64,000 nucleotides of DNA from NCBI GenBank assembly GCA_026168455.1, contig CM047426.1, positions 81,991,986 through 82,055,985 of the forward strand, given 5' to 3'. The position numbers were made by a program, and so were the translations under genes. This DNA is from Theocolax elegans (lineage: Eukaryota > Arthropoda > Insecta > Hymenoptera > Cerocephalidae). Shown piece after piece: positions 5,913 through 46,136 of the stretch (position 1 is its first letter; every line of letters starts with the position of its first letter). The notes beneath the pieces are model-generated. The model was not told the DNA's origin, did no database searches, and saw only the letters and a program-made list of their open reading frames with translations.

Positions 5913-8900
5913 TGTCGTATACTTAATTAATTTATTTTTGTGAAAATATGAAAACCAACAATACCATAATATTGTAATTAATTCAATTCTTATATCAATG
6001 TACAAATTATATTAGTTATGTAAATCATTGTATACAAGTAGTGAAAGAAATACTAATGTACGTTACTCACATACTCCGCATGCAATATAAGCAAACCAAA
6101 CATGTCACAGCATAACCGAAGAACATTGTCAAAAGAAATAAAAAGTTGAGGCAATTACTATTACTTTCTCAGCTATCTGGAAAATTAGTATTTTGAAAAT
6201 TTATCAAACCAGCGGGGAGGACATTTTTATGTTCGAAGAACTTTATACGCCTGACGCATCCCGGCATTACTTCCAGAAGGATCGACTTTACGATTCTCTA
6301 TTTATTCGTATTTTTACGACTCTTTTCATAAACAGCTATAACTCCAAACACACACCGACGTTATCCTCCTAGCATTAATAACAAAAAATTCAGTTCGAAA
6401 GATTTTCTGGATCTTCTATCGCACTTGCGGATATGATTTATCGGTACAGTTAGTTAAACAATAATAAACCGGAAAACATTATCTCTTTACGATTAAGTCG
6501 ATATTCCTTTTACTTTTTAATCAGTAAACTTTCTGTTTTCAAGCAAGTTTCGAGAACAAATTCATGCAAGTAAATAAAAACGATTTTACGCTCTAAAATC
6601 CAAATTTTATTCCACACGGTACATCGAGTAATGCTGAAATGCGGTTTAAAAAACCTTGCGTTGAATGCAGATTTTACTGATGAATCAATTTAGATCCATC
6701 AGAATACATTTACTTTTAAGTAATAAGTCTAATGCTGTTGGTATTTGATTTTTCTTCTTTTTCTGTTTTCTATTAGAAATTGGTCATGTTATCGATTTAT
6801 TGTAAGTTGGAGTTATGTTTGACGAATGTTATTGTAGTCAAATATCAAATTTAAATAAAATATAACCTTTTAGATCTAAATTGCTTCACTGGTCAAACTT
6901 GCACAACATGCATCCTTTATGAAGCTAACATCACAAGTTTACCAGTTCAATGAACTGTGTAATTAAATTTGGTTTTGGGATATACAATCTGATAGTATGA
7001 TACATCCCCAATATCTACCTGATCAATAATTTAATAAACGATCACAACAACAATTCTTGCTTATTATAAATACCGTATAATTAATCATCATACTAGAACA
7101 AACTTTTTTACTTGCGGTTTACTCTTTAAGTTTTCTAAACGTTGCGATTAGTTAAGAAATTTCCTTAAATTGAACAGAATTAATTAATTTCAATGAAAAA
7201 CTAAATAATTTACGAACATTATACCAAAAGGTCAAACATATCTTGCAAAATTCATAAGCCTAAGATTTCTACAGGAAAATATTACCTCACTCGGACTCTA
7301 TCTTTTATTTATAAAACATTACCGTTCGTCGAGATAAAGCGACCAAAGAAAAAAAATATATATATACTATATATAGGTCGAGAAAAATCGAAGTAACTCC
7401 CTTAATTTTCCGAAATTGCGGAAGATTAATGGGCCGAGGGAATTCTAGAGGAGAGGAATAGACAGCCGCATACATATAGAGACATCGATAAAGACGGCTA
7501 CCGAAGCTCTGTCGCATAACCTTGGGGGATTCCTGCGATACTTGGCATGTCGGATGAACGTCCGATGAGGAAGCAAGATGGAAAAAAAGTAGCGCCCGTT
7601 GGGTCTTTTTCGTATGCGCCGCGAGCGATCCTCTCGATTCTTTTATCGCTTCGGACTCTTTCTGCCTCGTCTGTCGAGGAAGTTCCAAGCAGAATTGAAG
7701 AAAAAGAGAGACGAATTATAGGATTCGGTGTGCGGTAATGAGATTGGCGATTTTGGCAAACGTGACGGGCAGTACGGAGTAGACCTGAACTCTTCGGGTA
7801 TGCTCGGGAAAAAAAAGGGAAAAAAATGTTCACTCGAGTGTTATTACGTGGGATGGAATTATTTTTGTTAGAGACGATGAGACTTTTGAGTGATATAGTA
7901 CGTGCATTCGATGGTGCTGTCGTGATAACGTTTATTTTGTTCAATGAGAATGGCGAATAAGAGGGTTCCTTGTGGAACTGGATGATTGTTTTTCCAAATT
8001 AATTAATACCGGGAACTACTATTGGATTTATTAATTGAATATATGTCTATGATTAAATGTACTAGGTTCAACGTTCAGATGGATTGCAGAGGATATTGGT
8101 TGCATTAGTTAGGTTTACTGTGGACTCGTACCATAGCTTCTCATTAAACTGGTCTAATTAATAGATGCTACGATGTTTAGTAGACAGTATCTACGATTAT
8201 TGAGCACCATTTAGACAACTTTTATCAATATCAGCAGTATAATTTATACAACAATTTCAACTTGACGCTAACAAAAATAAAGAAAATTTTACGCGTATAT
8301 CTTTATATAATTCTTGCAATGTCTGAAAAGTTGATAAACGTTTATTAAATTAGCAATGTCATTTACGATTTTATAAATGTTCCCGAACTCGAGGAATTCG
8401 TTCTAATTATTGTTGGTTTATTATCTAAAATTTAATTGTTCAATTTCAGAAAGTGACTGCTGTAAGATGAAATTGCAAGAGTAAATATTTAATAACGGTA
8501 ACAAGATAAATCATAAAAGAAATTTAATATTTCTTTTGTTATTCAATTACGTATACCAGTTTACGTAGTTAGCTATTACAATGTTATAAATTACTTCAGT
8601 GCCATTAGATTCGAATAACTAAACAAATCTATTTTATCAGCCAACAATTTAATGTAAGAATCTTCAGACACGTTAACGGAGTGAAAATCTTATAAATTAT
8701 AGATAAACTTACAATACAATATATCCTTGTAATAGTATATTTTTAAAAAAATGTGATTAAAAATATTAATTGAAAGAAATAATTACGTTCTAGCCTCTTG
8801 AACGAAAATGCAATTCTTCGTATAGAACAAATATTATCTTTTAGATTTCATAAATTATATACGTAGATAAAAGAAACGAGTTAAGTAGCAGGGAACATAC

Positions 8901-9336
8901 TCCAGCTGCAACTAAGCTCGTTCAAGTCTATTTTATATTAAAATAATTATCCTCAAAACGCAAAGGACAATAAGAAGAAAAGTCGAGGATAACTATAAAA
9001 AGCATCAAGGTTGCTAAGAATCGAAAAGTAAATTAATGTAACTCAATTGATAAACATTTGCCAGGGGTCCGTTCCTTGGTTAGAAAGGAGAAAGAGAGAT
9101 TCCGCGGTACGGTTGAGTGCCAAAAGGAGATTATTTTTCTTTCGAACCGTGAAAAAGCAAAGAGCTTCGCGAGAAAGAGAGAAAAAAATATAAAGACCCC
9201 TCTCGCGTAAAAAGAAGGAAGAGAGACATATTGGTAAAAGAAGAGCAAGAAAAAGAAAAGGCACCCAAAGGATATACCCGAGGAATAAAGAGGAAAAGTA
9301 AAAGATGAAGAGTGAGGCTGAAGGGGCAGAGGGGGA

Positions 9337-37302: not shown

Positions 37303-39057
37303 TAAAAAGGAGCGCTTTATTCAGAAGCGAGCGCGGGTGCGCGCAGTCCCGCGAATACTTAAAGGCGGTATTACATTCCGTAAATTGAAAGAATGCTCTT
37401 ATTGCAGCAACTCTCGCGGAAGTAATCGTCGATCTAGCCGCGCCTTCTCCTTTTTCTGCCGAATCGAGCGAGGAATGGAAGTATAGGGAGAAAATAAACG
37501 GGAGACCTCGAAGAGATGCGCGATTATCTTTTCTTTACTCTTTCCCTCTCCCTCTCTCTTACTTTTTCTTTTTTTCGCAGAGTCGTTACGACCGGAAAGT
37601 AGGTACCACTGAGATTTTCCCGTGGGGTGGCAATCTAAGTGCACTTATATGTACGAACGAGAGAGTATTACGTATTTTAGACTAATTTTCGTGAGGGTTA
37701 CTGAAACGTTATTAATTGAGAGTGCACTCGACTCATTTTCTTCTCTCTCTCTCTCTCTCTCGCTGTTTGTTTATTTTTTTACTCCGTCGCTAGCCTAGAG
37801 AGTGCGTATTTTTTTGCACGAGGAACTCGTAAAAATAAATATCCAGCTCGAAAATGTGTGCTCGATCTTTCATAGTTGACGAGACACGGGGAAGAAAATG
37901 ACCGTAAACGTATAACGATGTCCTCTTTCCTTGTAACTGCCGTCTTGTCGAAAATGTCCTTTTTTCAACGGGATTGTAATGCTTCTTGTTATTTTACTCA
38001 TGTAAAAACTCGGTACATACACCAAATGATACTTTATCTTTTACGCTTCTATAATTTATTAAGGAATACAAAAATTATCCGCGGTTAAAATATATTTTTT
38101 ATTTCATACTAATTGTATTTCGAAAATAAATAATTTACAATAAATGATTATTAAATGAGTAGTTTTTAAATAGTGCAGTGCATGTTAAGTTGAATATTAT
38201 TTATAGATAAGAAAGGATATACATATATATTATACAATTATAAATAGCATGTATAATAATAGAGAAAAAAACTATAAATTTATTTATTATCGTTTAATTT
38301 AATAACTTAACCAAAATAGGATACTTTTATAATATAAAATAGTTAAACGAAATGATTAGTTAATCGGAATAATATAAATATAAAATCGTAACATTCCTTA
38401 TAGTAATTTCCTATATATAATTTGAATAATGAATACATAAAAGACTAGAAAATTGAAAGTAGGTAGATGTTAAAAAGAATGAGATAAGGAAAATGGTACA
38501 AAGTGGGAACGTGCAGATCTCTTTAAGTTTCACTTTCTCCCGACGCAGCAAAACACACGTTTAAGTAGGATTTTCGCAAATACTCGTACTAAACTTTACC
38601 GAACAAATACAACACGACTTGTGTAAATACTAAATCAAATTTACATGCATGTTAAAAGCATTTACGTACTATCTGATTAATTGTATTCAGAGTTTTTTAG
38701 GCACGATCGTTACACGGAAGTGCCTTATATTTTCATCATCGCAAAATATGTGATACCTCAAAAAAGTATATATTTTGACATAAAAATAAAATTTATGCAA
38801 GTTAGAACCCATCCAAATCTCTCCCTAAAATGTATGTATGGATGTGTGTATGTATGAAATCCTGTGACCAAAATAACTCTGCTAATTTTTAATCGATTGA
38901 GCTGAAATTTACAGGGAATATTTGTTATAATTATAGAACTCTGTGGTCCTATTTTCAGATGTATTGCTCATAAATTGTGGAAGTTATGGAGCGTTTTACA
39001 ATTTCGTAAAATTGGTTTATGCATATTATCTCCAAAAATACTGTTCTTACGTACATA

Positions 39058-39700
39058 ATGAATTTAGACAAAATTTTCGTCTTAAAATTATAAAACTTTT
39101 TCCTATACAACACTTTCTGATTCGAGCAATATTTTTAAAGATACGTACATAAAAACAATAAAAATCATTAAAAATCTACAAAAAAGCACGTTTTTTCGTT
39201 ATAAATTGAAATGTATCATTTTTATATAAAAAGCGTAAATAGACAAAATATTCGTCACAAAATTACAAAACTTTTTCCTTTTGTACACTTAACGCTCAAA
39301 ACAATATTTTCGAAGATAAACATAGAAAAACGGTCAAAATAATGAAAAAAGCACAAAAAAAAACACGTTTTTTTCGCAATAAAACGAAATGTATTGTTTT
39401 AACTGAAGAACTTTTAATGAACGAAATGTTCGTCTTAAAATAACAAAACTTTTTCCTATTGTACACTTAACGCTCAAAACAATATTTTCGAAGATAAACA
39501 TAGAAAAATGATCAAAATAATGAAAAAAGCACAAAAAAACACGTATTTTCGCAATAAAAGGAAATGTATTGTTTTTACTGAAAAACATTTAAGGAACAAA
39601 CTGTTCCTATTAAAATAATAAACCTTTTTTCTATTATACGCTTAACGCTAAAACAATATTTTCGAAGATAAACATAGAAAATCGGTTCAAGTAATCAAAA
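39058..39700. repeat. Degenerate ~175 bp tandem repeat array in Helitron 5' half
   Basis: The phrase ACTTTTTCCT and its surroundings recur with spacing 175, 178 and 174 bp (39095, 39270, 39448, 39622). They recur again in the second large copy (40193, 40369, 40542). Each unit contains CTTAACGCTCAAAACAAT, TTTCGAAGATAAACATAGAA and AAAAGCACAAAAAAACACG, or decayed versions. The first unit (39058-39230) is the most diverged. On the minus strand these units make repeated short frames (FIFENIVLSVKCT and similar), which are a by-product of the repeat and not a gene. Confidence 0.88.
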
Positions 39701-39757
39701 AAATATGAAAAACGTTAAAAAGTTGACTTCTATTGTATAATTATTGTTGATGTAATA

Positions 39758-39945
39758 TCAGTTTCTTTTATCAGTATTTGTTGTATGTAAGTCTTTAATA
39801 TCTTTCTCCGGTTCATCATTTTCGTCATCAGATAAATTGCTACCATCTTGTAAATCTGGTCCAACTATTTCAGAAATATAGTCAAGTAACGCCTTAACCG
39901 CCAATTTTTCAGTCTTTCTTGAAGTGTCAAATTTTGTACACCATT
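39758..39945 (-). pseudogene. Unrecognised exon-like coding piece, copy 1
   Basis: On the minus strand an acceptor (ATTAATTTTAG) at 39946-39947 opens a 61-codon frame ending in TGA at 39758-39760. It starts WCTKFDTSRKTEKLAVKALL, continues DYISEIVGPDLQDGSN and then becomes strongly acidic (LSDDENDEPEKD). Composition and the alternating charged/hydrophobic helix pattern look like real protein rather than translated AT noise. About 70 bp upstream in the same direction is another short frame (40016-40067, WVPEFQKVRLQNKNVR) behind a CTAG acceptor. I do not recognise the family. It lies inside the Helitron, so a third captured host gene is likely. The frame is intact in both tandem copies. Confidence 0.5.
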
Positions 39946-40677
39946 CTAAAATTAATCATATTTATGTAAAAAAAATAAATATTGAAATTATTATCATTGT
40001 TACTAAAAATAATTCCTATCTAACATTTTTGTTTTGAAGGCGTACTTTTTGAAATTCAGGTACCCAACTAGTATATGACTTCATCATTTAAATGCACTAC
40101 ACTTTCATACTCATCTTTAAAATAAATAAATTATTTTACAATTATTTTATAAAAAGCGTAAATAGACAAAATATTCGTCACAAAATTACAAAACTTTTTC
40201 CTTTTGTACACTTAACGCTCAAAACAATATTTTCGAAGATAAACATAGAAAAACGGTCAAAATAATGAAAAAAGCACAAAAAAAACACGTTTTTTCGCAA
40301 TAAAACGAAATGTATTGTTTTAACTGAAGAACTTTTAATGAACGAAATGTTCGTCTTAAAATAACAAAACTTTTTCCTATTGTACACTTAACGCTCAAAA
40401 CAATATTTTCGAAGATAAACATAGAAAAATGATCAAAATAATGAAAAAAGCACAAAAAAACACGTATTTTCGCAATAAAAGGAAATGTATTGTTTTTACT
40501 GAAAACATTTAAGGAACAAACTGTTCCTATTAAAATAATAAACCTTTTTTCTATTATACGCTTAACGCTAAAACAATATTTTCGAAGATAAACATAGAAA
40601 ATCGGTTCAAGTAATCAAAAAATATGAAAAAACGTTAAAAAGTTGACTTCTATTGTATAATTATTGTTGATGTAATA

Positions 40678-40865
40678 TCAGTTTCTTTTATCAGTATTTG
40701 TTGTATGTAAGTCTTTAATATCTTTCTCCGGTTCATCATTTTCGTCATCAGATAAATTGCTACCATCTTGTAAATCTGGTCCAACTATTTCAGAAATATA
40801 GTCAAGTAACGCCTTAACCGCCAATTTTTCAGTCTTTCTTGAAGTGTCAAATTTTGTACACCATT
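40678..40865 (-). pseudogene. Unrecognised exon-like coding piece, copy 2
   Basis: This is the second copy of the acidic-tailed exon-like frame, offset by 920 bp from the first and with the same acceptor, the same 61 codons and the same stop. By eye I see no difference between the two copies over this stretch. The companion short frame is at 40936-40987. Duplication of the whole block explains the copy; it is not an independent capture. Confidence 0.5.
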
Positions 40866-41115
40866 CTAAAATTAATCATATTTATGTAAAAAAAATAAAT
40901 ATTGAAATTATTATCATTGTTACTAAAAATAATTCCTATCTAACATTTTTGTTTTGAAGGCGTACTTTTTGAAATTCAGGTACCCAACTAGTATATGACT
41001 TCATCATTTAAATGCACTACACTTTCATACTCATCTTTAAAATAAATAAATTATTTTACAATTATTTTACAAAAAGTAAAAAATTATTTTCTTTTATGCT
41101 ATATATAATAAAAAC

Positions 41116-41920
41116 TTACATTACAGTACTTTTGATGTACAAAGGACAATTTAACTCTTCGTACATAGTGCAATTGAAATTCTCCTTCAAGAAAAATGAC
41201 CAAAATTGGAAGAGTGTGTTCACCTCTTGTAACTTCTCTATACCAAGTTGTTTACGCTCTGAAATAAAGAGATTCCATGAATTCTAAAGTGAATGGCTTT
41301 ACGTAAATTTTATAAATAATGCATTTAACAACATGATTAATATAAATATGATTTCTTTAGCTAAGAAAAGAAAACATATTATAATAATCATCATCACATC
41401 AAGAATTTATAACTTAGTTACAAAAACTAAATACAAGGTTTTTAATATCTTACCTTTTAAACAACGTGAATGATATTTATGATACACTTGTTGAGTGAAA
41501 CCGTTCACTTTCAATAACGAATGACTAGGATGTTGAAAAGTTGACAATGATTGCGGAGCACTACCGTAACTACTAACTAAGAAACCTTTGTTTGAACTTG
41601 TATCAGCACTACTTCTGTAAATATAAAATAAAAAGAAAAACCTATTTATTATTGTAATAGAAAATAAAGCTAAATATTCAAAAACATAAAAAATATCACA
41701 TTAAGTAATAAAAATTGTTAGAAGATAACACATTAAACATCAGTTAATGGATTGAAAATCTTAATGATGTTCGCAAAACACTTTAATTAATATTGCATAA
41801 TTACATAATTTAACAATTGTTATATATGTTAAATAAAAATTATACTGTGCTTAAATTATAAATTTTATAAGCTTATTTCAAAATTAATATCTATGTAATT
41901 TATATATTTACCCTGAATAT
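41116..41920 (-). pseudogene. Captured LARP1 (La-related protein 1) DM15-region fragment, with introns
   Basis: Minus-strand exons are spliceable in one frame. Exon 41454-41614 has acceptor TTACAG and donor G|GTAAGA, and encodes 53 residues including FQHPSHSLLKVNGFTQQ and VYHKYHSRCLK. After an intron of about 195 bp (41259-41453, acceptor TTTCAG), exon 41258 downward encodes ERKQLGIEKLQEVNTLF and QFWSFFLKENFNCTMYEEL. The split codon across the junction restores Glu. An upstream donor at 41911 follows a short LRPRTYSG-coding stretch in matching phase. These are hallmark sequences of the first DM15 repeat of LARP1, the domain that binds the m7G cap and 5'TOP mRNAs. The match stops after MYEEL; 11 unrelated residues then run to a stop at 41116-41118, and the later DM15 repeats and the La module are absent. 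It is a fragment and cannot make a full LARP1, though a chimeric transcript is possible. The parent gene is not in this window. Confidence 0.9.
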
Positions 41921-42472
41921 GTTCTCGGTCTTAATAATTATAAGTGCCGTATTGTATTTATTATTACATAATAAGAACTTTAATAGTAAAATAATAAATA
42001 CAACATTAAATGCAAACTTAATGTAATTTTAAATAAATTAAAAAATGTAATAAAAAATGTGACAAACCGTTAATGTATACCAGATCAACCTTGAGAAAGA
42101 TTAAACATCGCCAAAACTATCCCAATACAAAACAAGAGGCTCGTGGTTATTGTTGAATTGAACCATTTTTGTTCCACTCACTACCATTGTTACTCTTGTA
42201 TTAAAATTGACTAGTAGGTGAATTACTCCTATAATTCATAATTATTTTATATAATTTATCTTTAAATTTAATTATAAAGTATTCTACAAATTAATAAAAC
42301 ATAAATAAAACGTAAAAAAATAAATATTACTTAGTTATTGACAACTTACGGCAACTTAATATTTTCAAAAATAAATAAAATATAAATCTTATACAATAAA
42401 TATTAACTAAATAATAAATAAAAATTATGTACCATCCAAAAATAGTTATTATTCTATTATTTTCAAACACTG

Positions 42473-42543
42473 CCAACATTGGACAAATACTGGACAAGAG
42501 CTTCTGCTGTTTCGTAATGCTCACTTAACTTTATATTAGAATA
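42473..42543 (-). other. Short protein-like frame inside the Helitron
   Basis: On the minus strand a 23-codon frame ending in TGA reads YSNIKLSEHYETAEALVQYL and then SNVGSV. Its residue mix (E, H, A, Q, V) stands out from the K/N/I/F-rich translations around it. It could be the C-terminal end of another captured gene. No good acceptor or family recognition supports it further. Confidence 0.25.
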
Positions 42544-43331
42544 ACTAATATCACACAGTAAAACTTCATGAAAATCATATAAAAACTATGTGTATACGTA
42601 ATATATATATACATAATGTATATACATAACTTTATATACACAATAAAATAAATAAACTAACTATCCGTTATATTTATTGTCCGTTTAAATAGTGCCATCA
42701 GCGCCATAATATACACATAAGAATAATGTATATCGCATTTTATGTAACCCGCGTCCCGTATCCAAATTTGAATTTCAAATTTTTTTTATTTTTTTACAAA
42801 AATATTTATTTATAACAATTTTCTTTTTTTATTTATTTTTTAATACAAAAAATCGAATAAAAAAAATAATTATAATAAAAAATTTTATTTATTAAAAAAA
42901 AACTAATATTTTTATAACAAAATTTGATATAAAAAAATATAAAACAGTAAAAAATATTTACCACACACAAAAATAAAATTTTGAAAATAATCTAAACGTC
43001 AAACCCTGTAAAACATGTTTTCATTAAGTCCAAATTTTTCTAAAATTTTAAATTAAAATTTAATTAAAATTTTTAAATAAAATTGAACGAAAAACTTTGT
43101 TCATAAACTTGAAAAATTTGGACTTGAACGTTAAATAAACATAATGAATTTATTGTGTCCGCGAATTCTAAGAATATATTGATTTTATATTACTTAAATA
43201 TATTCGTCTTTTCAAATATTATAATTACTTTTTTCTTAATTTTTCTTAATTTATTTAATTAATAAAAAAAAGAAATTATTAACGTTTACATGTTATTAAT
43301 AACATTGTAATTTAATATAGAAGTTAATAAT

Positions 43332-43714
43332 TCACTCTTTATGTACATATTTCAATTTACTTTGTTCACTGAGTTTTTCATTTGACAAATTCATCAATTT
43401 AAACATAAAGTACATATACACTACTCTAAATATACTACCAAAGAAAGCACCCGATAACACATATTTGGGACCTAAATTAAATTTATATAATGCTCCAGTA
43501 ACCATTTCACCAGCTGCATAATAAAAAAAAACAAAGCTTCATACAAATGAATTTCTTTAAAAATTAACAAATTTAAACAATATACATGAATGCTGCTGTA
43601 TATCGAATAAATAAATTAATTATATTGTTTCATATAGACTAATTTAAATTGTACAATATTTTATCACATTTACTTACCTTTACTGTCCAAAATATACGTC
43701 CCATTAATAATGTT
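43332..43714 (-). pseudogene. Captured Tim17/Tim22/Tim23-family fragment, TIMMDC1-like
   Basis: A minus-strand exon at 43332-43513 begins after a good acceptor (TTATTATGCAG) and encodes GEMVTGALYKFNLGPK, then a hydrophobic stretch with GAFFGS and a short charged tail before TGA. G-x-x-TGALYKxNLGP is the signature style of Tim17-superfamily membrane proteins, closest in my reading to TIMMDC1, a mitochondrial complex I assembly factor. A short upstream exon (to 43678, donor AAAG|GTAAGT) ends in phase 1, as the downstream exon requires, with an intron of about 164 bp between them. Immediately upstream in that frame is a stop after about 12 codons, so the fragment is truncated. The usual GxxG-rich second half of the domain is degraded. 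The assignment to the superfamily is fairly firm; to TIMMDC1 specifically it is an inference. Confidence 0.62.
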
Positions 43715-44140
43715 TTACCAAATATTCTTTAGAAGAAACATTAATGTAAAAAAAACTATATGGTTTTATATAAACATATGTAAATTATGTATGTATGTAT
43801 TTTTTTCACATCACGTTACAAAAATGTGTTTCCTATTACTTCTTTCTTGCCAAATATTTTTTTTTTTAATTTTTGAAATATTTGAGGAACAACACTTTTC
43901 TCTTCAATACATTGATATTCAGAATATTAAAATAATATCTAAAATTTAATATCTATAAATACATTTTAAATTTATTATTAGAACATATATGTATATGCAA
44001 AATAATAATTCTGCATACTATAATTACAATTCTAATTTTTATTATTATTACTTTATATAATAACAAAAACCACTAACGGTGCGAGCGCGAAGCGCCAGCT
44101 ATAGCTCGACCCCCCTAGTATGTTAATGTTAATATTATAT

Positions 44141-44214
44141 CTGAAGTATGACAGTCCCAAGCCTGTTTAATAGCAGAAGGAAATGTGATAAAAATTTCCA
44201 AACCATTTAAATTT
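44141..44214 (-). other. Exon-like fragment just outside the Helitron 3' end
   Basis: After a textbook acceptor (TTTTTTGTAG) the minus strand encodes NLNGLEIFITFPSAIKQAWD and then CHTS. This looks like a genuine coding exon rather than noise. It lies between the Helitron 3' end and the right arm of the 16 bp inverted repeat. Continuing in frame runs into the Helitron terminus, where the terminal CTAG supplies a stop. It may be a remnant of the element or gene into which the Helitron jumped, or part of a longer Helitron if the true end is 44495. The family is not recognised. Confidence 0.3.
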
Positions 44215-44455
44215 CTACAAAAAACAATTGTAATGACTAATTCAAGTAATTTATGCTGTTCTTTTAAATGATGGAATCAGAAAATAGCCATCGAAAATTT
44301 AGAGTTTTTTTTAGAAGTTTTGATTCCTTTTTGTTACTTAATGTTTCTAATTTCTATTGTATATATTACGATCAAATTTTTTTTAATGTAAATAGGTGAA
44401 AGACACCATCAACACATAACCATTTAGTATATTATTGTAACGATCGTGCCTGGAA

Positions 44456-44495
44456 TGTAAAAGCGTATAGCTTTTACATATTTCGGCCCCACTAG
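44456..44495 (+). other. Hairpin followed by CTAG: alternative Helitron end
   Basis: TGTAAAAGC-gtata-GCTTTTACA (44456-44478) is a perfect 9 bp stem. It is followed 13 bases later by CTAG (44492-44495) and then T, the same grammar as a Helitron 3' end. It lacks the GC-rich character of the 44081-44118 end. It could be the terminus of a larger or nested element. Confidence 0.3.
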
Positions 44496-46136
44496 TTTAA
44501 ATTTCGATTAGTCGAATAGTGCATATATAAATTACAAGTATACGAACAATTCCTGCTATAAATTTTGTTTATGTCACTGTAATAAACTATTCAAGTTCAT
44601 GAATAATAAAAAGAAAGGAATCAATTATAAAATTCCATACCGCAATCGTTATAATCCAAATATACGATATAAGAAAACCGAGACGAAAATTCGATTGCTT
44701 GAGGGTTATCACTATACAAAAGAAAAAAGAAAGTAGAAGTAGAAACGTTCTAAAACCTCGGTAGAGTATAAGTATCGTAATATCAACAAAGCGTTTAAAG
44801 TCGTTTATTATCAGTGTTTAACGGGAAACGAGGAAGGAGTTTAAACTGGCTCGATTCGAGTGAGATAAAAACAAGCTTATAAAAGCTATCGGAAATTGCG
44901 ACTTCCCTCGAGGTCCGTCTCGGTCAAGATTACGCAGTGAGGTTCGACGACGCAACTCGAAGTAGGTGGACGATGGAACGTCATGTATTGTTGGTCGGCT
45001 CGAGTGGCTTTAAACAAGCGAGAGCGCGCACGTGCGGTACGAGGAACACGCGACACGCTCGTGTTAACACCAAGAGAGGAGCGGCTTGCCGGAAATTGTT
45101 CAAGATTTTACAACGATCGTGTTACCCTGATTCGTCCTCTTAGGCGTTTCGGAAACTTGAAGGGCTTCAAAGAATCGCATAGGTTGTTGTAAACCGTGTC
45201 TATGTGCACTCGAAATTAATGAGCTATTCACTCGAGGAAGAACGAATTTACGGAAAAAAAATAACTATACGGAATTATAGCTATATTATAATTATTTTCA
45301 CGTGATTGTTTGATTAAGAAACAGTATCTAACAAATTATTTTTTTTAAGTTCCCTTCATTCGTGTGAAAACAATCAAAAATATTTTGAAACAATTGTAAA
45401 AAGTAAATCAAACTTACACCTATAAATGTAATTAAACCGGTAATTGTTATTCATATAAATAACGAAATATCTACAGACATATGCCACAAAAATTAATAAC
45501 AAAATCGAATGAAACTAGTGATTATTCCAAAATCATGTGAAATAACCAAGTCAAACAATATCGATACACCCAAGAGTTCGATTCCAAGGAAGTTCGAGTA
45601 GTCGATTCATTAGTGCCGGTGCCACTGAATCATATATATGTGTATATAAATCACCGAGCACACGCGACCGCTTCATCAAATTGACTTGCTCCCGCAAAAC
45701 CTGTAAAGAAAAAAAAAGAACAAAAGAGGGAGAAAAAAAAAAGAATCGGGGACTCTCGATCGGCCACAGGCCAATAACAACCCTATCTCATAAAAAATCG
45801 ATAAATTCCATCGGGTCGCGGATATCTCCTCGACGTCCCTCCCCCGGCCGTTCCTCCTTTCCCAAAGTTCTTCGTCCCCATCCGAAAAACCAAAAACCAA
45901 TCACCATGCCTCGGGTAACTCGATAAATCACCATAACTCGCCGATTGATCAAAGGAGAAATGCCTTCGATCCTTATACTCTCCCCTCTCCTCTGCCCCTT
46001 GACGGTCCTCCATCAGCGTCCCTCGGCAATCCCAAGAATTCCCTGGGCTGAACTTTCTGCATTCAAGGCTACCGCCCATAAAGACGCGCAACCTAGAGAG
46101 ACCTATACGTGTGAACGTATACCCGTTTTAACTCGC

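What the first reader, a model, noticed from the sequence alone, without database searches (positions are those of the whole stretch)
41116..41920. Helitron has captured the cap-binding DM15 region of LARP1
The minus strand of the Helitron encodes FQHPSHSLLKVNGFTQQ...HSRCLK and then, across a properly phased intron, ERKQLG...NTLFQFWSFFLKENF. These are unmistakable DM15 sequences. LARP1 controls translation of 5'TOP mRNAs through this domain, so a mobile copy of just its first repeat could produce a decoy peptide, an antisense or siRNA source against host larp, or nothing. Frames are open across both exons, so decay is limited.
Basis: partly seen in the sequence, partly recalled or inferred. 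Interest (0 to 1): 0.88.

Follow-up and report, generated by a model that had tools for sequence, protein, structure and literature searches.

The report
Jumping DNA carrying dead gene scraps
A repeated, self-spreading piece of insect DNA has picked up broken bits of three ordinary genes, including part of the translation regulator LARP1; the LARP1 bit looks decayed rather than made into working protein, so this is a nice multi-gene example of a known process rather than a new system.

Summary
Confirmed: window 41153-42135 (minus strand) is a captured piece of the host larp (LARP1) gene, introns included; its main part is 84% identical to a host locus on another contig. It sits in a 5.8-kb non-autonomous rolling-circle element (38698-44496) with Helentron/HINE ends: palindromic subterminal repeats, 3' hairpin, CTAG end, T-T target, tandem repeats and, for one copy, three fetched empty sites. 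The family is abundant (149 larp-fragment matches besides the host gene among 150 scored; 193 matching 3' ends). It carries pieces of three host genes on three contigs: Tim17-family (TIMMDC1-like), larp (two pieces, La-motif region missing between) and DPH6-like. Not supported: a cap-binding decoy. Of 39 complete second-exon copies held, 39 have a stop at the codon for human R879 and 39 have Gln for R840; the window copy lacks repeats B and C. Synonymous counts fit neutral expectation in the four of six fragments tested. No 21-mer of three larp exons occurs in the window element. Best reading: dead captured DNA amplified by a HINE, a new member of a known kind.

The parts
38698..44496 (+). whole non-autonomous Helentron/HINE-like element (5' end TAGGCACG, 3' end CACTAG followed by T; one T at the border is ambiguous)
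   Evidence: same ends in other copies with unrelated flanks; empty sites for copy L041
38700..38713 (+). 5' subterminal inverted repeat GGCACGATCGTTAC, with palindromic core AACGATCGTT (core read by eye)
44437..44450 (+). 3' subterminal inverted repeat GTAACGATCGTGCC, 45 bp from the 3' terminus
44456..44478 (+). 3' hairpin TGTAAAAGC-GTATA-GCTTTTACA, 17 bp before the CTAG end
   Evidence: coordinates counted from its printed sequence
39068..39702 (.). central tandem repeats, about 175-bp period
39240..41080 (.). tandem duplication with about 920-bp spacing that doubles part of the DPH6 fragment and the repeats (approximate limits)
43253..43528 (-). captured fragment of a Tim17-family (TIMMDC1-like) host gene
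   Evidence: 85% over 288 bp to host L050 = C4:68050900-68052300
41931..42135 (-). captured larp piece 1: host DNA upstream of the La-motif exons (promoter, 5' exon or intron not resolved)
   Evidence: 77% over 215 bp to host L029 3360-3568
41153..41931 (-). captured larp piece 2: exon tail, intron, DM15 exon, intron, start of next DM15 exon
   Evidence: 84% over 791 bp to host L029 8494-9278
41454..41614 (-). larp exon with SSADTSSNKGFLVSSYGS...HSRCLK
41153..41258 (-). larp exon start ERKQLG...NFNCTMYEE (R840-equivalent is Q)
41153..41154 (-). junction of the ~400-bp deletion that fuses DM15 to the DPH6-derived exon
40629..41154 (-). captured DPH6-like host gene fragment (introns included); second copy of part of it at 39709-40141
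   Evidence: 85% over 539 bp to host L049

Best explanation
A non-autonomous Helentron (HINE) lineage in this insect captured, at the DNA level with introns, pieces of three host genes on three contigs (TIMMDC1-like, larp, DPH6-like), and then multiplied by rolling-circle transposition into T-T sites using a partner's Rep/helicase. The larp part is passenger DNA: broken before or early in the amplification and drifting since. The window copy additionally lost about 400 bp. Shown: ends, target, empty sites for one copy, host source loci, abundance, shared lesions in larp, a substitution pattern that fits neutrality. Inferred: the trans-acting Rep/helicase, the capture step, and lack of function.
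For: Host loci found for the three fragments: larp, DPH6-like, Tim17/TIMMDC1-like. The host La-motif exon at L029 6388-6540 lies in the gap between the two larp pieces. Ends: TT before AGG in 18 of 18 and T after CTAG in 10 of 10 distinct ends that fitted the search patterns in held loci. Empty site: joined flanks of L041 match contiguous sequence in other places; three fetched ones lack the insert and have one T fewer than the joined flanks. Abundance. Decay of larp: TGA at the R879-equivalent codon in 39 of 39 and CAA at R840 in 39 of 39 second-exon copies; 16 of 35 first-exon copies open. Neutrality: synonymous changes observed/expected 15/12.6 and 18/16.3 for the two larp exons, 6/5.8 for the TIMMDC1-like piece and 8/8.2 for one DPH6 exon (two other DPH6 exons were not put through this test).
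Against: No Rep-encoding element with these termini was identified; only 150 of 1746 Rep candidates were scored, only the first 100 or so of 193 relaxed 3' ends were listed, and I compared them by eye on C1-C4 only, where the nearest pair is about 19 kb apart. Plain count-based dN/dS among copies was below 1 for DM15 (0.34 and 0.38; 0.57 and 0.61 on distinct changes), though the spectrum-matched test removes that signal. The TIMMDC1-like piece is mostly open: by my reading 147 of 150 scored matches show no stop (405 candidates), and 17 held copies had 0 new stops but 5 frame-breaking indels among 13; a ranking by protein score favours open copies, but some constraint there is not excluded. One 3' end (L038, CACTAC followed by A's print) departs from the rule and did not fit the pattern used for the count. 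Copies are related and some are tandem copies in one element.
Confidence: 0.92

Rival explanations
1. The element makes antisense or small RNAs that lower host larp (or DPH6/TIMMDC1) expression.
For: High copy number; larp piece lies antisense to the Helentron 5'-3' direction; 5 of 779 host 21-mers occur in some held copy.
Against: 0 of 779 21-mers of the three larp exons examined (limits estimated by me) occur in the window element; longest exact match 20 nt. No expression data. The DPH6 and TIMMDC1-like exons were not examined this way.
Confidence: 0.04
2. A decoy DM15 peptide is made that competes for 5'TOP mRNAs.
For: Window copy has open spliced frames with host splice sites.
Against: Residues that bind cap and TOP (R879, S882, Y883, E886, Y922; PMC5419741 passages) are beyond the window copy's fragment; R840 is Q; stop at R879 codon in 39 of 39 complete copies held.
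Confidence: 0.01
3. The element came by horizontal transfer carrying another insect's larp, DPH6 and TIMMDC1 pieces.
For: Host-versus-element differences in the larp exons are rich in third positions (3:3:15 and 11:7:19 for positions 1:2:3), as between two constrained genes.
Against: Host constraint alone gives such a skew; DPH6 pieces show 2:2:3, 2:3:2 and 4:3:8. No search in other insects was made, so no foreign source was looked for.
Confidence: 0.07
4. It is a canonical Helitron (TC...CTRR, A-T target).
For: 3' hairpin and CTAG end.
Against: No 5' TC; T-T not A-T target; subterminal inverted repeats.
Confidence: 0.02

Closest known systems
HINE / DINE-1 (non-autonomous Helentrons; Thomas et al. 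2014, PMC4067079, passages and section 12 seen)
   Same: 12-15 bp palindromic subterminal repeats near the 5' end and 38-60 bp from the 3' end, 3' palindrome, T-rich/TT target, no target change at empty sites, central or tandem repeats
   Different: carries fragments of three host genes, while that paper reports none in the mite HINEs; no autonomous partner was found here
Helentron-Cq-32A of Culex (same paper, section 12)
   Same: Helentron with two captured, broken gene fragments (histones), 83-84% identical to the parents, amplified (eight copies)
   Different: different genes; here three genes, introns kept, two separated pieces of one gene, more copies
Gene-capturing Helitrons of maize, bats and silkworm (PMC6544945, passages seen)
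   Same: DNA-level capture and amplification of host gene fragments
   Different: Helitrons with other ends and target (recalled for canonical Helitrons)
LARP1 DM15 region (PMC5419741 passages; PDB 4zc4 and others)
   Same: clear homology of the fragment to the start of the DM15 region
   Different: nothing after MYEE in the window copy, R840 lost, stop at R879 in 39 of 39 complete second-exon copies held

Membership tests
Helentron / HINE | palindromic subterminal inverted repeats, 2-4 nt from 5' end and 38-60 bp from 3' end | tested here: met
   GGCACGATCGTTAC at 38700-38713, complement at 44437-44450, 45 bp from the CTAG end; 10-bp palindromic core (criteria from PMC4067079 passages)
Helentron / HINE | short palindrome/stem-loop 8-35 bp from the 3' terminus | tested here: met
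   9-bp stem, 17 bp from the end
Helentron / HINE | insertion in T-rich/TT site without target site duplication | tested here: met
   TT in 18 of 18, T in 10 of 10 pattern-fitting ends; three fetched empty sites for L041; a single T is ambiguous; only one copy's site tested out of the six sent
Helentron / HINE | Rep/helicase-endonuclease partner with the same ends | tested here: inconclusive
   150 of 1746 Rep candidates scored; compared by eye, C1-C4 only, with listed 3' ends
canonical Helitron | 5' TC and insertion between A and T (recalled) | tested here: not met
functional LARP1 DM15 | cap/TOP-binding residues R840, F844, R879, Y883, E886, Y922 | tested here: not met
   R840 to Q and R879 codon to stop in 39 of 39 complete second-exon copies; window copy ends before R879 and has Q at R840. 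F844 is kept in the window copy
host larp locus | La motif and downstream DM15 exons contiguous | tested here: not met
   host locus is C1:84869387-84872443 and beyond; the window copy runs into DPH6 sequence

The most novel reading that the evidence does not exclude
The three captured genes (translation regulator larp, diphthamide synthesis DPH6, a TIMMDC1-like mitochondrial gene) make the family a trans-acting RNA source: transcripts of its many copies feed piRNAs or siRNAs that tolerate mismatches and tune these host genes, which would have favoured the captured arrangement. The mostly open TIMMDC1-like frame may in addition be read into a short peptide.
Probability: 0.04. Interest if true: 0.75.

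Novelty: new member of a known kind. Interest (0 to 1): 0.36.

Why it matters
Gene capture is well known for Helitrons, but the Helentron paper read in part here reports only few cases (Culex, Phytophthora; PMC4067079). This family gives an abundant case with host sources mapped, introns kept, and three donors on three contigs plus one internal jump in larp, so junctions can be used to test models of capture such as filler DNA and end bypass. It also warns annotators: well over a hundred LARP1 and TIMMDC1-like matches in this genome are, where checked, transposon passengers. If small RNAs from it touch larp, it would matter more.

Tried and rejected
NDUFB4 as third gene: weak Pfam hits below the cut-off, no host match above the cut-off; replaced by the Tim17-family gene after a direct host match. 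The name TIMMDC1 is my recall of that protein; the calls show the Tim17 family only, weakly (host exon 22.5 bits, under the cut-off of 32.7; fragment 17.5 bits). The name DPH6 rests on Pfam Diphthami_syn_2 matches at the host locus and recall. A protein search for the TIMMDC1-like fragment gave nothing; PDB searches gave nothing.

Selection on captured frames: looked for, not found after matching the mutation spectrum; four of the six fragments were put through that test. Other related 3' ends: L054 shares only a ~37-bp 3' end with this element. The host species was not identified; 'insect' rests on the LARP1 hits (best named hit a beetle at 76%) and general look.

Rows dropped before counting: L009 (same place as host L029), L010 and L022 (same places as L035 and L038), and hits not reaching within 8 bases of the fragment ends; this drops the window from the second-exon set. 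L001-L008 were not in that set. One search used 6 of the 9 joined flanks printed; its 40 scored candidates of 3086 all fell in the L041 block, so the other five sites stayed untested.

Full report
What was reported.

Both exons are present in frame with a phase-1 GT-AG intron. The spliced peptide hits Pfam LARP1_HEAT (E 6.2e-27, profile 1-62 of 149) and LARP1 chains in the PDB (E 3e-32). It is far beyond chance.

It is not the host gene. In the same genome the top DM15 hit is C1:84872165-84872443, an open exon. A La motif lies about 2.6 kb upstream, and the neighbouring ORFs fit the rest of larp. The window stretch matches this locus in two pieces: L029 3360-3568 (77%) and 8494-9278 (84%), with introns. 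In six of the seven other copies compared the second piece runs to 9546 in one stretch; in the seventh (L038) it does so in the last of three tandem copies. The host La-motif exon lies in the skipped 4.9 kb. Whether the first piece is promoter, 5' exon or intron I could not resolve.

Extent and type of the element. Alignment of the window with 18 other loci of 9-10 kb (L031-L048) gives common ends at about 38694 and 44497 (16 left and 11 right ends printed). The refined limits are 38698-44496. Ends are TAGGCACGATCGTTACA... and ...TGTAACGATCGTGCC...hairpin...CACTAG. The element is flanked by TT on the left in 18 of 18 and by T on the right in 10 of 10 distinct ends that fit the search patterns; L038, whose 3' end reads CACTAC and is not followed by T, and L044, with a variant end followed by T, did not fit the right-hand pattern. 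For copy L041, joined flanks match contiguous sequence elsewhere: the 40 scored of 3086 candidates fall in the L041 block. In three fetched ones the site is whole and has one T fewer than the joined flanks. These features match the description of HINEs, the non-autonomous Helentrons, in PMC4067079 (passages, section 12), rather than canonical Helitrons. Tandem repeats of about 175 bp lie near the left end, and the window copy has a tandem duplication with 920-bp spacing.

Abundance. A DNA search gave 639 candidates; 40 were scored, the window itself among them, and match. The DM15 profile gave 1073 candidates; the 150 scored matches pass the cut-off and one is the host gene. These are places, not elements, most were not inspected one by one, and some elements hold tandem copies. 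Exact 3' ends number 86; ends within two mismatches number 193, with no control match. Two copies, L046 and L048, are 99.5% identical over 3.56 kb, so some spread is recent.

Other captured genes. Next to larp lies a DPH6-like fragment, 87% over 670 bp in L033 and 85% over 539 bp in the window, against a host locus on C3. On the other side lies a fragment of a Tim17-family gene on C4, 85% over 288 bp in the window and up to 91% in other copies; 54 of 68 residues of the copies' consensus agree with the host. I call it TIMMDC1-like from recall. Thus three donors on three contigs.

The window's second exon is a fusion. Relative to L033 the window lacks about 400 bp between 41153 and 41154. DM15 residues end at MYEE; LNCPLYIKSTVM corresponds to the host DPH6-like LDCPLYIKSIVM.

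Decay. In 39 of 39 complete second-exon copies the codon equal to human R879 is TGA where the host has CGA, and the codon equal to R840 is CAA where the host has CGA. Human numbering was mapped from the alignment (chain number minus 77, my count; it puts R840, F844, R879, S882 and Y883 on the residue types named in PMC5419741, passages; the stretch around R879 is partly recalled human sequence and partly the second alignment). Of the held copies, 16 of 35 first exons read open, and 1 of 39 second exons reads without a stop, necessarily by frameshift. Plain dN/dS counts for DM15 were 0.34 and 0.38, which taken alone would hint at constraint. When the observed mutation spectrum is placed at random, synonymous counts match expectation: 15 against 12.6, 18 against 16.3 (larp), 6 against 5.8 (TIMMDC1-like), 8 against 8.2 (one DPH6 exon), P 0.25-0.60. 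Against a uniform decay story, the TIMMDC1-like piece is mostly open: by my reading 147 of 150 scored matches have no stop, and 17 held copies show no new stop, but 5 of their 13 indels break the frame. That search ranks by protein score, which favours open copies. So there is no sign of selection on larp, within the limits of related copies, and weak grounds to look again at the TIMMDC1-like piece.

Mechanism. Capture kept introns, so it took DNA, not mRNA. The donors lie on different contigs and larp shows an internal jump, which suits template switching or filler-DNA repair inside a replicating or broken element more than a single read-through past the 3' end; this is inference. By eye, junctions share at most a few bases with the donors. 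Amplification must use a Rep/helicase from elsewhere; the genome has many Helitron_like_N matches (150 scored of 1746 candidates), but I did not tie any to these ends.

Regulatory effects. For the three larp exons examined, no 21-mer of 779 is in the window element (longest exact match 20 nt) and 5 occur in some held copy. A small-RNA role for this copy would need mismatch-tolerant pairing. No RNA data were available.

Literature. Searches for Helentron with gene capture (6 of 6 papers listed in each), for Helitron with captured gene fragments or wasp (25 of 87 listed) and for Helitron with LARP1 or DM15 (15 of 46 listed) showed, among titles and abstract starts, no report of a Helitron or Helentron carrying larp. 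I read parts of three papers: PMC4067079, PMC6544945 and PMC5419741. Gene capture by Helentrons is in print for Culex and Phytophthora, by Helitrons in maize, bats and silkworm.

Verdict. A real, multi-gene capture by an abundant HINE; the LARP1 part is passenger DNA. A new member of a known kind.

Noticed in passing
L049 (C3:21957900-21962200): The host DPH6-like gene has a local tandem duplication of 859 bp (98.6%) that doubles several exons; real or assembly error not settled.
   Followed up: no
L038, L039, L021: Some elements hold two or three tandem copies of the larp DM15 stretch.
   Followed up: partly
window 43253-43528 and C4:68050900-68052300: The TIMMDC1-like frame stays open in most copies (147 of 150 scored matches by my reading), unlike the larp frame; chance, ranking bias or constraint is not settled.
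   Followed up: partly
G000:C4:52961524 and others: Copy L041 is inserted in another abundant dispersed repeat (40 scored of 3086 candidates for the whole six-flank query), not identified.
   Followed up: no
L054 (C1:64901500-64903550): A different repeat shares only about 37 bp of the 3' end with this family, hinting at several families using one 3' end type.
   Followed up: partly
G000 genome-wide: Very many Helitron_like_N (Rep) matches; most of the 150 scored list one TGA inside, perhaps one shared lesion of an amplified Rep lineage; whether it is the same codon was not checked.
   Followed up: no
L046-L048: A young subfamily, 97-99.5% identical over the longest aligned pieces (3.6-4.3 kb), with a left end only about 80% like the window's.
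   Followed up: partly
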